A stretch of DNA of 15,888 bases from Myxococcales bacterium (GTDB taxonomy: Bacteria; Myxococcota; Polyangia; Fen-1088). Numbering within the stretch: the first letter of the stretch is position 1; each line of letters starts with the position of its first letter. Shown here in pieces: positions 26 through 15,818 of the stretch. The translations under genes and the position numbers were made by a program. The stretch covers positions 1-15,888 of the forward strand of contig PMCR01000296.1 in the NCBI GenBank assembly GCA_003155465.1. The letters run 5' to 3'. The notes beneath the pieces were generated by a model. The model was not told the origin of the DNA and made no database searches. It saw nothing but the letters and a program-made list of their open reading frames with translations.

Positions 26-115
26 CTCACGCCCTCGCCCACGCGACCCGCTAGCCGCGAACCGCGGGCCAGCCCTGCGGGCGGCCCGCAATTTCCCGAC
101 AAGCCGTAACTAGTT
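26..115 (+). repeat. Left copy of imperfect inverted repeat bracketing the response regulator
   Basis: Positions 26-60 match the reverse complement of 1747-1781 at 34 of 35 bases; the only mismatch is at position 46. With small gaps the similarity continues through roughly 61-115, where shared landmarks include AATTTCCCG versus AATTACCCG and GCCGTAACTA versus GCCGTAGCTA. The copy reaches the stop codon of the regulator at 110-112. I found it by aligning the sequence by eye. Whether it is a genome-wide dispersed repeat cannot be told from this window. Confidence 0.75.
64..89 (-). terminator. GC-rich hairpin downstream of the response regulator, possible terminator
   Basis: GCGGGCC at 64-70 pairs with GGCCCGC at 83-89. 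Inside it GCCC at 72-75 pairs with GGGC at 79-82 around the loop TGC, with a single bulged A at 71. The structure begins about 20 nt past the stop codon of the minus-strand regulator. There is no T-tract on the minus strand after the stem, so it is a weak intrinsic terminator at best. It also lies inside the left inverted-repeat copy. Confidence 0.4.
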
Positions 116-6949: not shown

Positions 6950-6964
6950 CCCGCACAGATCAAG

Positions 6965-7001
6965 AAAGCCGCTCTTCCCTTTCAGCAGGAAGAGCGGCTT
7001 T
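6965..7001. terminator. Strong bidirectional-type hairpin between thyX and the vWA lipoprotein gene
   Basis: AAAGCCGCTCTTCC at 6965-6978 and GGAAGAGCGGCTTT at 6988-7001 form a perfect 14-bp stem with a 9-nt loop. It lies between two convergent genes that end at 6949 and 7036. The A and T runs at the stem ends give short T-rich tails in both directions, so it probably terminates both transcripts. Confidence 0.88.
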
Positions 7002-7035
7002 CGTAGAGACGGCTATGTGTCGCAGCAGCCTGTCG

Positions 7036-11196: not shown

Positions 11197-11961
11197 CTAC
11201 CGGCGGACGGTTGATCGCTCGATCACTTCGAGGGCTGCGCGGCAGGCAGCGGCTGCGGCGCGGGTCGCGTTGCGCTTCCAGGCCGCGTGCGCGCACGGGC
11301 CCACGGCGTTGCTGATGCCCAGGATGGCCGCAAAGGGCAGCCCACCCGCCACCGCGGCGCGGGCGACGGCAAAGGCCTCGAGGTTCTCGACGTCGCAGGC
11401 CGGGGACTGGCTGCCTCGCCCGACAGGGACCGGGCGCGACGTGATGGCGAGCGGACACGCCACATCGGCCATGAGCAGGCCGGCCGCCGCGGCGATCCGG
11501 CGCAGGGCAACTGTGGTCTCCTGCGTGGCGGGCAGGGCCGGGGGAAAATACGCGTCGCCGGTCGCCACCCCGTCGGACGAGAGAACCAGGCGCCGGGCTG
11601 CTACCACGCCTGCCAGGGCAAGGTCGGGGCGCCGGCCCGGGTAGCTGCCGGCCGTGCCGACCAACATGACGGCGTCGGGTTTCACCTCTGCGATGGCGGC
11701 GGTGGCGCCGATGGCGGCCTCGACAAGGCCGACGCCCGCCACCCGCGCGACCACCTGTTTGCTGGTCGCGCGGGGAGCCGGCCGGCTTTGCCGGCCGCGC
11801 ACCATCGCGGAAGGGTATGGGAACCCTTTGAGGGTTCCCATATCATTGGACCCTTGTTTGAGCAGGCGGAGAAGCTCAGCCAGCTCCGGCGGCCAGGCCG
11901 CCAGCACGAGCCAGCGCGTAGGCGGAGGCGTCTGATCGGGCTTGCCGGTTCGCGAGCGCAA
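11197..11961 (-). CDS. mqnB: Futalosine hydrolase MqnB (nucleoside phosphorylase superfamily)
   Basis: Predicted to cleave futalosine to hypoxanthine and dehypoxanthine futalosine for menaquinone synthesis. The 254-aa protein has the superfamily landmarks: an N-terminal strand RWLVLAAWPPELAEL, GVGLVEAAIGATAAI, VMLVGTAGSYPG, SSDGVATGDAYFPP, CDVENLEAFAVARAA (nucleoside-binding Glu region) and the late block LGISNAVGP. MTA/SAH nucleosidase is the main alternative, but adjacency to mqnD favours MqnB. The start is TTG 11961 with AAGGA 10 nt upstream; a GTG a few codons after the Thr/Pro stretch is possible. Residues about 37-69 are not family-like and are encoded by a hairpin-rich segment (see the repeat at 11756-11860). 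The frame stays open through it, so the enzyme may still work. Confidence 0.85.
   Translation of the reverse strand: MRSRTGKPDQTPPPTRWLVLAAWPPELAELLRLLKQGSNDMGTLKGFPYPSAMVRGRQSRPAPRATSKQVVARVAGVGLVEAAIGATAAIAEVKPDAVMLVGTAGSYPGRRPDLALAGVVAARRLVLSSDGVATGDAYFPPALPATQETTVALRRIAAAAGLLMADVACPLAITSRPVPVGRGSQSPACDVENLEAFAVARAAVAGGLPFAAILGISNAVGPCAHAAWKRNATRAAAAACRAALEVIERSTVRR
11756..11860. repeat. In-frame hairpin element inside mqnB with flanking direct repeats
   Basis: TGTTTG at 11756-11761 and 11855-11860 are 99 bp apart, exactly 33 codons; on the coding strand each reads CAAACA within Lys-Gln codons. Between them are two perfect hairpins: CGGCCGGC/GCCGGCCG (11779-11786, 11790-11797, loop TTT) and TATGGGAACCCT/AGGGTTCCCATA (11816-11827, 11831-11842, loop TTG). 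A third, CGCGCGACCA/TGGTCGCGCG (11744-11753, 11763-11772), straddles the right-hand repeat on the coding strand. It encodes the non-conserved residues about 38-70. Hairpins and repeats are seen directly; insertion is an inference. Confidence 0.65.
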
Positions 11962-13725: not shown

Positions 13726-15096
13726 ATGAAAAGCCCTCTGCCGTCGCCGTTGCTGACCATGCTGGCCAGGCGGGCGTGGGTGATTCTTGGGGTTCTGGTC
13801 GTGCTTGCGGCTGTGCTGCGCGTGCTTCTGGTCGCCTATTGCCCGGTGCCTTTCGGATATGTGTTCGACCTCTACTACCGGGGCATCACTCACTTGTTCA
13901 AGACGGGACAAATTCCCGGACCGAAAGACTGCTGGGAATGCGCACACCCGCCAGTTTTCTTTCTGATGGGCTGGCCCTTCTACGAACTCGGCATGAAGAT
14001 CCGGCCGGGCGACGAGGCCTTCGCCCTGCGGATGGCGGGGCTATTGCCGCTTGGCTGCGGAGCCGTCATCAGCATCTACGCGTACCGCCTGCTCGGCGCC
14101 TTTCGCTTCGATCGGGCACATCGCGTGGTTGGGGCTGCGCTGATCCTGACTTTCCCCTGTCTCTTCATCAGCAGCTATGGCCTCGAGGCGGACATCGTCG
14201 TTACCGCCTGGATGACGGTGTTCCTCTACTACCTGGTTCGCTACCACATTTCCCGGGACCCCCCCCCCATGACCATACTCGTGGTGGGTGCCTTGGCAGG
14301 TGTGGCCATGTTGACCAAGTACAGCGGCTTCGTCACCCTCCTCACCGCGTTGGCGGTAGTGGCCATTCGCGTGACCCGGTGCCGGGTGCAGCGGGTCCTG
14401 CGAGACGGAGCGCTCCTGGTTGGCGCATGTCTGGCGGTGTGCGGCTGGAAATTCGTGGCCAACATTGAGGAACATGGCACGCCCTTCGTGGCCAACTGGG
14501 TGGCCACGAACAGCTATACGGTCGGCCGCAAGACGCACCGCTATTGGAACATCTACGACTTCGCGACATTTCGCCTGGGTGATGCCCTTGACCTGTGGCC
14601 GCCGAATGCACCGCCCGGAATACTCACCCACCAGGATGTCTACTACAGCGTTCCCACATGTCTGCACGCACAGGCGTGGACGGACATGAGCTTCTTCTCA
14701 GTTCCTGGCCGTCACGGATTACCCAAGGCGCAACCCTATCCGCTCAAGGAAGTCCCGCTGTGGCTCATCGCCTCGGTCTTGATCCTCGGCGTGGTGCCAT
14801 CGGCGCTTGCGCCGATCGGCTTTGCCGCGACGTTGCGACGCCGTTTCTTCTGGCCGCTCGGGATCTACACCCTCATCGGCATGGCCTCCTACACGTGGTG
14901 GTTCGTGGCGCAGATGACGTGGAGTATTAAGACCAAATACATCCTGTTCCTCCTGCCGGCCTACGTTTGCTACGTGCTGCTCGGGCTCAAGGTTCTTCGT
15001 TCCTGCCGCACCTTCCTAGCCGATGTGGCACTCGTTCTTCTATTCGCGCTCTTCGCGGTCACCCACGTCTATTTGTTCGAGTTCGCGGTTCGATGA
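13726..15096 (+). CDS. GT-C-type integral membrane glycosyltransferase (PMT/ArnT-like)
   Basis: A 456-aa polytopic inner-membrane protein with roughly 9-11 hydrophobic segments, the first at about residues 16-38. It resembles lipid-linked-sugar glycosyltransferases of the PMT/ArnT/GT39-83 group. The first periplasmic loop carries an acidic motif (FDLYYRG) where the catalytic Asp sits in these folds, followed by HPPVFFLMGWPFY, like the family's HPP-x-hydrophobic motif. Later blocks are GLEADIVVTAWMTVFLYYLV and ALAGVAMLTKYSGFVTLL. Such enzymes transfer a sugar from a polyprenyl phosphate to a lipid, protein or polysaccharide; donor and acceptor are unknown here. A run of ten C at 14259-14268 encodes Pro-Pro-Pro in the loop after RYHISRD; a one-base change there would truncate the protein. 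No Shine-Dalgarno is seen before ATG 13726; ATG 13759 is a fallback. Neighbours are pseudogene debris on both sides. Confidence 0.82.
   Translation: MKSPLPSPLLTMLARRAWVILGVLVVLAAVLRVLLVAYCPVPFGYVFDLYYRGITHLFKTGQIPGPKDCWECAHPPVFFLMGWPFYELGMKIRPGDEAFALRMAGLLPLGCGAVISIYAYRLLGAFRFDRAHRVVGAALILTFPCLFISSYGLEADIVVTAWMTVFLYYLVRYHISRDPPPMTILVVGALAGVAMLTKYSGFVTLLTALAVVAIRVTRCRVQRVLRDGALLVGACLAVCGWKFVANIEEHGTPFVANWVATNSYTVGRKTHRYWNIYDFATFRLGDALDLWPPNAPPGILTHQDVYYSVPTCLHAQAWTDMSFFSVPGRHGLPKAQPYPLKEVPLWLIASVLILGVVPSALAPIGFAATLRRRFFWPLGIYTLIGMASYTWWFVAQMTWSIKTKYILFLLPAYVCYVLLGLKVLRSCRTFLADVALVLLFALFAVTHVYLFEFAVR
14259..14268. repeat. C10 homopolymer within the glycosyltransferase gene
   Basis: Ten consecutive C residues lie at codons about 178-181 of the 456-codon gene. 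In the reported length the frame is open. It is the longest homopolymer I saw in the window. Confidence 0.9.
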
Positions 15097-15164
15097 TGGA
15101 AGCTTCGGGCATAGGTGTAAGCCGCAATAATTCCGTGCGGAGTGTGTAGCGCCTGAGATTCTGT

Positions 15165-15663
15165 CAGTGCTCGCAGGAGCGGCAGCTGACGGGGATTCGC
15201 GTGGTCAGCGGCGCCCCAGCGGAAATCCACGCAGCCCGCTTGCAAAGCTGCGGGAGCGACGCGGGCTCGGCCATGTTCATGGCCACGGGGCGTGAACGCG
15301 CGCGCCGGCCGGTATTTGGCCACGGTCCTTGGCGACACGTGATGGCCGAGTTTGGCCAATTCGGCGGCGATGACGTCCTCACCCCACAGCGGGTTTTCGA
15401 TCCACATCCGGCGGATGAGCGCTCGGGTGTCCGCGTCGATGGGCGGTCGCCCGACTGGTCGCCGAGATCGTCGACGCCAGAACAACCTCCACAGGGAGCG
15501 GTGCCAGCGAATCACGGTGTCGGGCGAACAATGGGGACGGCAGCGACGAGCGACGGGAACAGCTTGGTGATGGCGCCGATAAGGAAGCGGTCGCGGGCCT
15601 TGAGGCGAGGGTGGGGCGTGGCCCGATGGAGCAGGATCACTTGTTGGCCAGAAGCTTCGGCGC
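15165..15663 (-). pseudogene. Decayed integrase-type (rve) transposase, IS3/IS481-like
   Basis: Two frames are needed to read the family. From about 15663 to 15520 the minus strand gives QQVILLHRATPHPRLKARDR and FLIGAITKLFPSLVAAVPIV. A one-base shift near 15520 then leads into DTVIRWHRSLWRLFWRRRSR, GRPPIDADTRALIRRMWIEN, and AELAKLGHHVSPRTVAKYRP. This is the N-terminal helix-turn-helix part of an integrase-core transposase. After about 15300 the sequence loses similarity and no DDE catalytic residues can be placed, so most of the catalytic domain is deleted or scrambled. Traces may continue to about 15110. No terminal inverted repeats or target duplication were found. The element is dead. Confidence 0.7.
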
Positions 15664-15800
15664 CTTGTCAGCGACGACGATCGCTCGTCGTAGTCCTGGC
15701 GTCGGTTCAGGAATACCGCTCGCCGTGCCGGCATCCGCATGTCGCCATGCGCGCGACTTTCCTGAGCTGGAATCAAGAGTGAGCCGTTCTGCTCGTCCGC

Positions 15801-15818
15801 CTTCACTATGTAGTGAAG
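15801..15818. promoter_or_regulatory. Perfect palindrome upstream of the Tat-exported protein gene
   Basis: CTTCACTATGTAGTGAAG has 8-bp arms around TG and is much more AT-rich than its surroundings. It ends 26 bp before the ATG at 15845, where a repressor operator overlapping a promoter or early leader would be expected. It could also be an RNA hairpin with a tiny loop, which is less likely. Confidence 0.5.

What the first reader, a model, noticed from the sequence alone, without database searches (positions are those of the whole stretch)
11756..11860. A 33-codon hairpin-rich segment sits in frame inside mqnB, bounded by CAAACA direct repeats
Perfect hairpins of 8 and 12 bp with 3-nt loops lie between two copies of TGTTTG (CAAACA on the coding strand) exactly 99 bp apart. 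Both copies encode Lys-Gln in the same phase, and the residues between look unlike the nucleoside phosphorylase family. Removing one repeat plus the insert would rejoin LLRLLKQ to VVARVAGVGLV. This is what in-frame insertion of a small palindromic mobile element with a 6-bp target duplication would leave, comparable in principle to the Rickettsia palindromic elements known to sit inside coding genes. A 6-bp repeat alone could be chance; the phase, the hairpins and the non-conserved peptide together make the case.
Basis: partly seen in the sequence, partly recalled or inferred. Interest (0 to 1): 0.75.

Follow-up and report, generated by a model that had tools for sequence, protein, structure and literature searches.

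The report
Palindromic mobile element inside a gene
A small 81-base hairpin-forming DNA element, scattered in many copies through the genomes of related uncultured myxobacteria, has inserted into a vitamin K2 synthesis gene without breaking its reading frame, so the protein carries a 27-residue extra loop that most relatives lack.

Summary
The core of the finding holds. The segment is one copy (11766-11846, + strand) of a dispersed 81-nt double-hairpin element. Its 21-nt hairpin core occurs exactly in 103 stretches from 11 Myxococcota-type MAGs and in no viral contig. With only 40 first-look candidates scored per genome, all 11 give 26-59 matches; 1.31 Mb of one genome holds 26 copies. Of 44 aligned MqnB rows that reach this region, 41 are empty, two full, one remnant-like. 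Empty orthologues lack 25-27 codons.

The proposed 6-bp target duplication fails: both Lys-Gln pairs exist in an empty orthologue. A third hairpin was missed.

About a fifth of sampled copies lie inside predicted ORFs (28 of 137 distinct), nearly all coding on both sides in one frame, among them LigA, a CoA ligase, a secretin and UvrD. HP1 shows compensated changes. Left flanks favour TAG, often a stop codon.

It works like Rickettsia palindromic elements, but fails tested defining features of GTAG REPs, RPEs and MITEs. The mobilising enzyme is unidentified. New variant of a known kind.

The parts
11766..11846 (+). The palindromic element, 81 nt, in the orientation of the family model; antisense to mqnB; encodes residues 39-66 of the mqnB product
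   Evidence: nhmmer 11766-11845, E 1.2e-21; canonical length 81 nt; best relative 95% identical over 80 nt in G002
11779..11797 (.). HP1, variable hairpin, 8-bp stem, 3-nt loop
   Evidence: 5 of 8 HP1 pairs show changes on both sides in the family
11816..11842 (.). HP2, constant hairpin, 12-bp stem, 3-nt loop, containing the 21-nt core GGGAACCCTTTGAGGGTTCCC
11742..11774 (.). Third hairpin, 12-bp stem, 9-nt loop, formed by mqnB flank and the left end of the element
   Evidence: similar flank sequence is present in empty orthologues L104, L106, L107
11197..11961 (-). mqnB (futalosine hydrolase family), the host gene, open through the element
   Evidence: PF01048 at residues 19-248; TIGR03664 best NCBIfam match but below its cut-off, 70.1 of 124.7 bits; all 39 invariant columns of the alignment include the window row
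11756..11761 (.). First TGTTTG: flanking sequence older than the insertion
   Evidence: CACCTGTTTGC in empty L106 and L107
11855..11860 (.). Second TGTTTG: flank, one base from TGCTTG in L107

Best explanation
It is one copy of a non-autonomous, palindromic, probably selfish DNA element of 81 bp that has multiplied in an order-level group of uncultured Myxococcota. Shown: dispersed copies, a defined unit, empty sites, a preference for TAG at the left flank, hairpin pairing kept through compensated changes, and a minority of copies inside genes in frame. Inferred: it moves as hairpin-bearing single-stranded DNA recognised by an enzyme supplied in trans, perhaps of the Y1 (IS200/REP) kind, and joins 3' of a short target without a clear duplication. 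Its length is 27 codons and its consensus is stop-free in 4 of 6 frames, so some gene hits leave a working frame and survive selection, the protein gaining about 27 residues. In mqnB it lies antisense and adds a low-confidence loop between helix 24-42 and strand 70-74 of the predicted fold.
For: Dispersal: 103 exact core stretches in 11 MAGs; 26-59 matches in each of 11 genomes with 40 candidates scored per genome; 26 copies in 1.31 Mb of G003. Empty sites: mqnB +25 to +27 codons against 8 orthologous loci; 41 of 44 informative homologues empty; P0001 (filled) and P0003 (empty) identical in 219 of 228 aligned residues; exactly 27 residues in L084 against G003C3 and 29 in LigA against L054; intergenic L046, L048, L054 against empty stretches. 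In frame: coding scores positive on both sides in the same frame for nearly all of 29 genic hits, 19 of 20 scanned hosts with Pfam domains. Length: 81 nt in 20 of 28 genic and 69 of 92 intergenic copies. Structure: 48 doubly changed paired cells against 11.6 in shuffles, 0 of 500. Target: left-flank TAG in 24 of 92 against 0.65% background; 11 of 92 start at the stop of a co-oriented gene, 0.27 expected. Fold: insert at pLDDT about 48, neighbouring core 86-98.
Against: No movement was observed and no mobilising enzyme is assigned: Y1 genes in these genomes have no adjacent copy of the element. The host genome is not held. The 103 loci were sampled by an exact HP2 core, so HP2 constancy is partly built in. 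Genes were called with a home-made finder. Translation of the insert is not shown. Two of five AlphaFold models were poor, mean pLDDT 58.4 and 56.6. One covariation measure, further pair types, was not beyond shuffles (74 of 500), and the structure slid by -3 scores 0.083 against 0.095.
Confidence: 0.88

Rival explanations
1. It is a GTAG-type REP (repetitive extragenic palindrome) moved by a RAYT transposase of the same genome.
For: Hairpins, high copy number, mostly between genes, TAG at the left flank (24 of 92, GTAG 6 of 92). A Y1_Tnp protein of about 307 aa has close copies or pieces in 10 of 11 element-rich genomes and in none of 7 others of the order, apart from one distant 24% match in G013 (Fisher p 0.00025, kinship not removed).
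Against: 81 nt with two hairpins rather than 20-40 nt; GTAG tag in 6 of 92 only; two empty sites already hold the TAG; context as background, divergent included (48 tandem, 30 divergent, 15 convergent against 364, 178, 82); no element within the flanks held (mostly 1.5 kb) of 9 and 12 Y1 loci, best hit E 0.013 far downstream in L215; upstream of several of these genes lies a different GTAG-containing repeat.
Confidence: 0.25
2. The segment is an ordinary lineage-specific loop of MqnB that folds into hairpins by chance.
For: The site is a loop of variable sequence in the family.
Against: The DNA matches dispersed copies at up to 95% over 80 nt and in unrelated genes.
Confidence: 0.01
3. The element is kept for a function, for example as an mRNA or DNA structure, rather than being selfish.
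For: Compensated HP1 changes; at nine pairs of filled orthologous sites the element mostly differs at 1-6 of 81 positions while flanks are 80-91% identical; many copies begin at stop codons.
Against: HP2 identity is partly a sampling effect; copies occur in all kinds of gene spacing and inside genes; one pair (L016/L030) differs at 13 of 81; the pairing may be needed only for moving.
Confidence: 0.15

Closest known systems
Rickettsia palindromic elements (RPE; Ogata and co-workers, seen only as cited in PMC10969869 and PMC3733652)
   Same: Palindromic, dispersed, inserted in frame in unrelated genes whose products probably still work
   Different: About 150 bp in R. conorii by PMC10969869 against 81 nt here; Rickettsia against Myxococcota; RPEs are said to end in CGTC (PMC3733652), these do not
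GTAG and CGTC REPs, including intragenic ones (PMC3733652)
   Same: High copy number, palindromic, mostly between genes, some in genes encoding 20-30 residues, repair genes among hosts, TAG supplying stop codons
   Different: Two different hairpins in one 81-nt unit; no strict GTAG or CGTC tag; no bias against divergent spacers; no adjacent RAYT gene
MITEs such as RUP, NEMIS, ERIC
   Same: Short, non-coding by themselves, dispersed, can fuse to genes
   Different: No terminal inverted repeats and no clear target duplication
IS200/IS605-derived non-autonomous elements (recalled, from no call)
   Same: Hairpins near both ends, short target at the left, no clear duplication
   Different: No autonomous relative with shared ends found

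Membership tests
Rickettsia palindromic elements | In-frame insertion into unrelated coding genes | tested here: met
   29 of 142 hits, 28 of 137 distinct, inside predicted ORFs; same-frame coding scores on both sides for nearly all; empty orthologues
Rickettsia palindromic elements | CGTC tetranucleotide at one end (PMC3733652) | tested here: not met
   Ends are TCGCG and ATGTCA
Rickettsia palindromic elements | Sequence relationship to RPE families | not tested
   No RPE sequence was fetched
GTAG REPs | GTAG tag at one end | tested here: not met
   GTAG in 6 of 92, CTAG 15, any TAG 24 of 92; TAG already present at two empty sites
GTAG REPs | Short single palindrome of 20-40 bp | tested here: not met
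   81 nt with two hairpins
GTAG REPs | RAYT gene flanked by the repeat | tested here: not met
   No adjacent element at the Y1 loci examined
MITE | Terminal inverted repeats | tested here: not met
   The two ends of the consensus are not inverted copies of each other
MITE | Target-site duplication | tested here: inconclusive
   Flank identity little above re-paired controls, at most 7% against 1% for 4-mers; one site, L048, could be read as a 5-nt repeat
IS200/IS605-type non-autonomous element | Subterminal hairpins and a short left target without duplication | tested here: inconclusive
   Hairpins and TAG preference met; target not strict, junctions not exact
IS200/IS605-type non-autonomous element | Moved by a Y1 HUH transposase that recognises its hairpins | not testable with these tools
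   Only co-occurrence, 10 of 11 against 0 of 7, confounded by kinship

The most novel reading that the evidence does not exclude
The element is shaped for life inside genes: a fixed 27-codon length, open reading frames on both strands, and internal hairpin modules that enlarge it by whole codons (about +15 residues in L088 against L035, +22 in L070 against L086) make it a coding-tolerant parasite that keeps adding loops to proteins of a free-living bacterial group.
Probability: 0.25. Interest if true: 0.75.

Novelty: new variant of a known kind. Interest (0 to 1): 0.6.

Why it matters
In-frame palindromic elements are best known from Rickettsia; the 2024 review PMC10969869 only calls a similar process elsewhere conceivable, while PMC3733652 lists intragenic REPs in several other bacteria. 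A dense family in Myxococcota MAGs with filled and empty orthologues in several genes lets one test how proteins accept a new peptide, which enzyme moves such repeats, and how often selection spares hits in genes.

Tried and rejected
CAAACA target duplication: rejected on empty orthologues. Chance loop: rejected. REP-like location at convergent or 3' spacers: not found. An autonomous copy with the two halves far apart: of 122 left-half hits, 96 had a right half within 30 nt, 21 at 30-150 nt, 2 further off (152 and 194 nt), 3 none. Y1 transposase as owner of the element: its flanks do not carry it. Orientation bias of genic copies, about 19 antisense to 5 sense after my hand de-duplication: p 0.06 if 60% antisense is expected, so not claimed.

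Limits of the counts. The 103 loci were chosen by an exact HP2 core. The gene finder was written here (coding 85-91%, 87.7%). One search used the 142 hits of score 35 or more out of 184; five were repeats of one site (137 distinct), and orthologous sites remain counted apart. G003 contigs, and some of their cut points, were picked from earlier hits, so 26 per 1.31 Mb may be somewhat high. One search aligned 69 of the 71 equal-length copies printed. One search scored 7,998 candidates and listed 120 of 295 proteins; one search aligned 45 of those 120 with the window. In one search only 4 candidates per genome were scored. L014 against L031 gave no clean empty site, 14 residues net with unrelated filler. 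No fitting Myxococcota paper appeared (Myxococc* terms) or among the 20 listed (889 papers, Sorangium term); only the held open-access library was searched.

Full report
Observation. A third perfect hairpin, 11742-11774, lies beside them. As single-stranded DNA the region 11735-11870 is far more stable than its shuffles (z -8.2, 0 of 200). Neighbours: AccA, a VitK2_biosynth (MqnA/D-type) protein and an MnmA-type protein by Pfam; MutL, MiaA and ThyX are my own reading of the ORFs.

What it is. An exact scan of the GTDB species genomes with the 21-nt HP2 core gave 103 stretches from 11 MAGs titled Myxococcales (8, isolates fen_...), Proteobacteria (2, Chersky) and Deltaproteobacteria (1, Zod), and 0 in viral contigs. 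Around the core the copies share a unit that begins TCGCGTGGGGAGCC, runs through HP1, a linker and HP2, and ends ATGTCA. With the window copy as query 11 of 11 genomes matched, 26-59 matches each; 40 of 75-226 first-look candidates were scored per genome. In 1.31 Mb of G003 there are 26 copies of score 35 or more, which would scale to roughly 120 in 6.0 Mb. In the order of G003 16 of 18 genomes match. In a class sample 30 of 192 match, with long matches almost only in that order, G019 and G082; the others are short.

Empty sites. Of 46 aligned MqnB rows 44 reach the region; 41 have at most 3 residues in the 27 insert columns, the window and P0001 are full, and P0004 keeps 8 residues reading IGTLKGF, like a remnant. 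P0002 (97% identical over its part) is truncated and starts inside the insert. P0001 and P0003 agree in 219 of 228 aligned residues and differ by a net 22 residues at the insert. Orthologous loci lack 27 codons (L104, L106, L107), 26 (L105, L108) or 25 (the distant L110-L112). L107 has Lys-Gln on both sides of its empty site, which removes the duplication reading. L109 has an NN gap there. No mqnB orthologue was found in G003 (best hit E 2.7e-8 to the element part). Other genes: L084 against G003C3 exactly 27 residues; LigA of G003 against L054 29 residues. Between genes: L046, L048 and L054 against empty stretches.

In genes. In 1.55 Mb, 142 hits of score 35 or more: 89 intergenic, 15 abutting, 9 at an edge, 29 inside a predicted ORF; without repeated sites 85, 15, 9 and 28 of 137. 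For nearly all genic hits the coding score is positive in the same frame on both sides; it is near zero or negative on one side in L068 (two hits), L011 and L023. Nineteen of 20 scanned host proteins have Pfam matches: CoA ligase, MFS transporter, histidine kinase (the same site in three genomes, L006, L036, L100), CcmF, IMS polymerase, Ppx/GppA, SASA esterase, DUF6057, POR_N, PMT, GH116, secretin, M16 peptidase, PepX, UvrD, pyridine nucleotide-disulphide oxidoreductase, radical SAM, pterin-binding; LigA was scanned. In the G003 sample 4 of 26 copies lie inside ORFs although 87.7% of the sequence is coding: gene hits are mostly lost, and those that remain are in frame.

Length and frames. The unit is 81 nt in 20 of 28 genic and 69 of 92 intergenic copies; 26 of 28 and 84 of 92 lengths are multiples of 3, so the codon multiple is a property of the element and not only of gene hits. 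Longer forms with extra internal hairpin sequence stay in frame in L088 (against L035) and L070 (against L086). The consensus is open in two sense and two antisense frames; the third antisense frame has only a terminal TGA.

Structure. On 66 distinct copies the 26 pairs I drew form in 93.4% of cells; 48 cells have changes on both sides against 11.6 in shuffles (0 of 500), 8 pairs against 4.7 (3 of 500), further pair types 15 against 13.3 (74 of 500). Five of 8 HP1 pairs vary on both sides; HP2 hardly varies, partly by sampling. At nine pairs of filled orthologous sites flanks are 80-91% identical while the element differs at 1-6 of 81 positions, except L016/L030 with 13, where HP1 is swapped but still paired.

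Targets. The left flank ends in TAG in 24 of 92 copies (0.65% in intergenic background), TGA in 9, TTG in 8. Eleven of 92 begin within 3 nt of the end of a co-oriented gene (0.27 expected), 8 of them with TAG; 14 right ends lie at the 3' end of an opposite gene. Tests for a duplication were weak.

Mobiliser. PF01797 passes in 5 of 11 genomes. A search with one such protein (L162) finds close copies or pieces in 10 of the 11 element-rich genomes; among 7 others of the order only a 24% match in G013. The genes have no adjacent element. I leave the enzyme open.

Protein. The best AlphaFold2 model (mean pLDDT 82.1, pTM 0.80) keeps the core at high confidence, with residues 41-60 near 48 as a loop after helix 24-42; other low stretches lie near 131-140 and 171-190, and two of five models were poor.

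Known kinds. PMC3733652 (section 15 and passages) describes intragenic REPs and RPEs in several bacteria; PMC10969869 (passages) calls in-frame RPE insertion unusually frequent and a like process elsewhere conceivable; PMC12306157 (passages) does not mention Myxococc*. The kind is known; the family, the host group, the fixed 27-codon unit and its in-frame growth are new as far as these searches go.

Noticed in passing
window 26-88 and 1562-2016: 39-nt inverted arms (26-64 and 1743-1781, 95% complementary) on both sides of an NtrC-type regulator; these and the 1562-2016 spacer match many places in related genomes (31 blastn hits for the spacer), so a second dispersed repeat family.
   Followed up: partly
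window 6964-7002: Perfect 15-bp stem with 9-nt loop between two genes, probably a terminator.
   Followed up: no
window 15069-15806: ORF with a weak HTH_32 match below the Pfam cut-off, perhaps a transposase remnant.
   Followed up: no
L210-L215, L221-L224, L163, L166: Multi-copy Y1_Tnp genes of about 307 aa; several have a different GTAG-containing repeat (GGTAGGTGCCAGAGTTTTC) upstream.
   Followed up: partly
L016/L030, L006/L036/L100: At the same orthologous site the HP1 stem differs on both arms yet stays paired, in L006/L100 inside a coding gene; gene conversion, re-insertion or hairpin-templated repair are possible.
   Followed up: partly
L109: mqnB of G009 has an NN assembly gap at the insertion region, so its state is unknown.
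   Followed up: no
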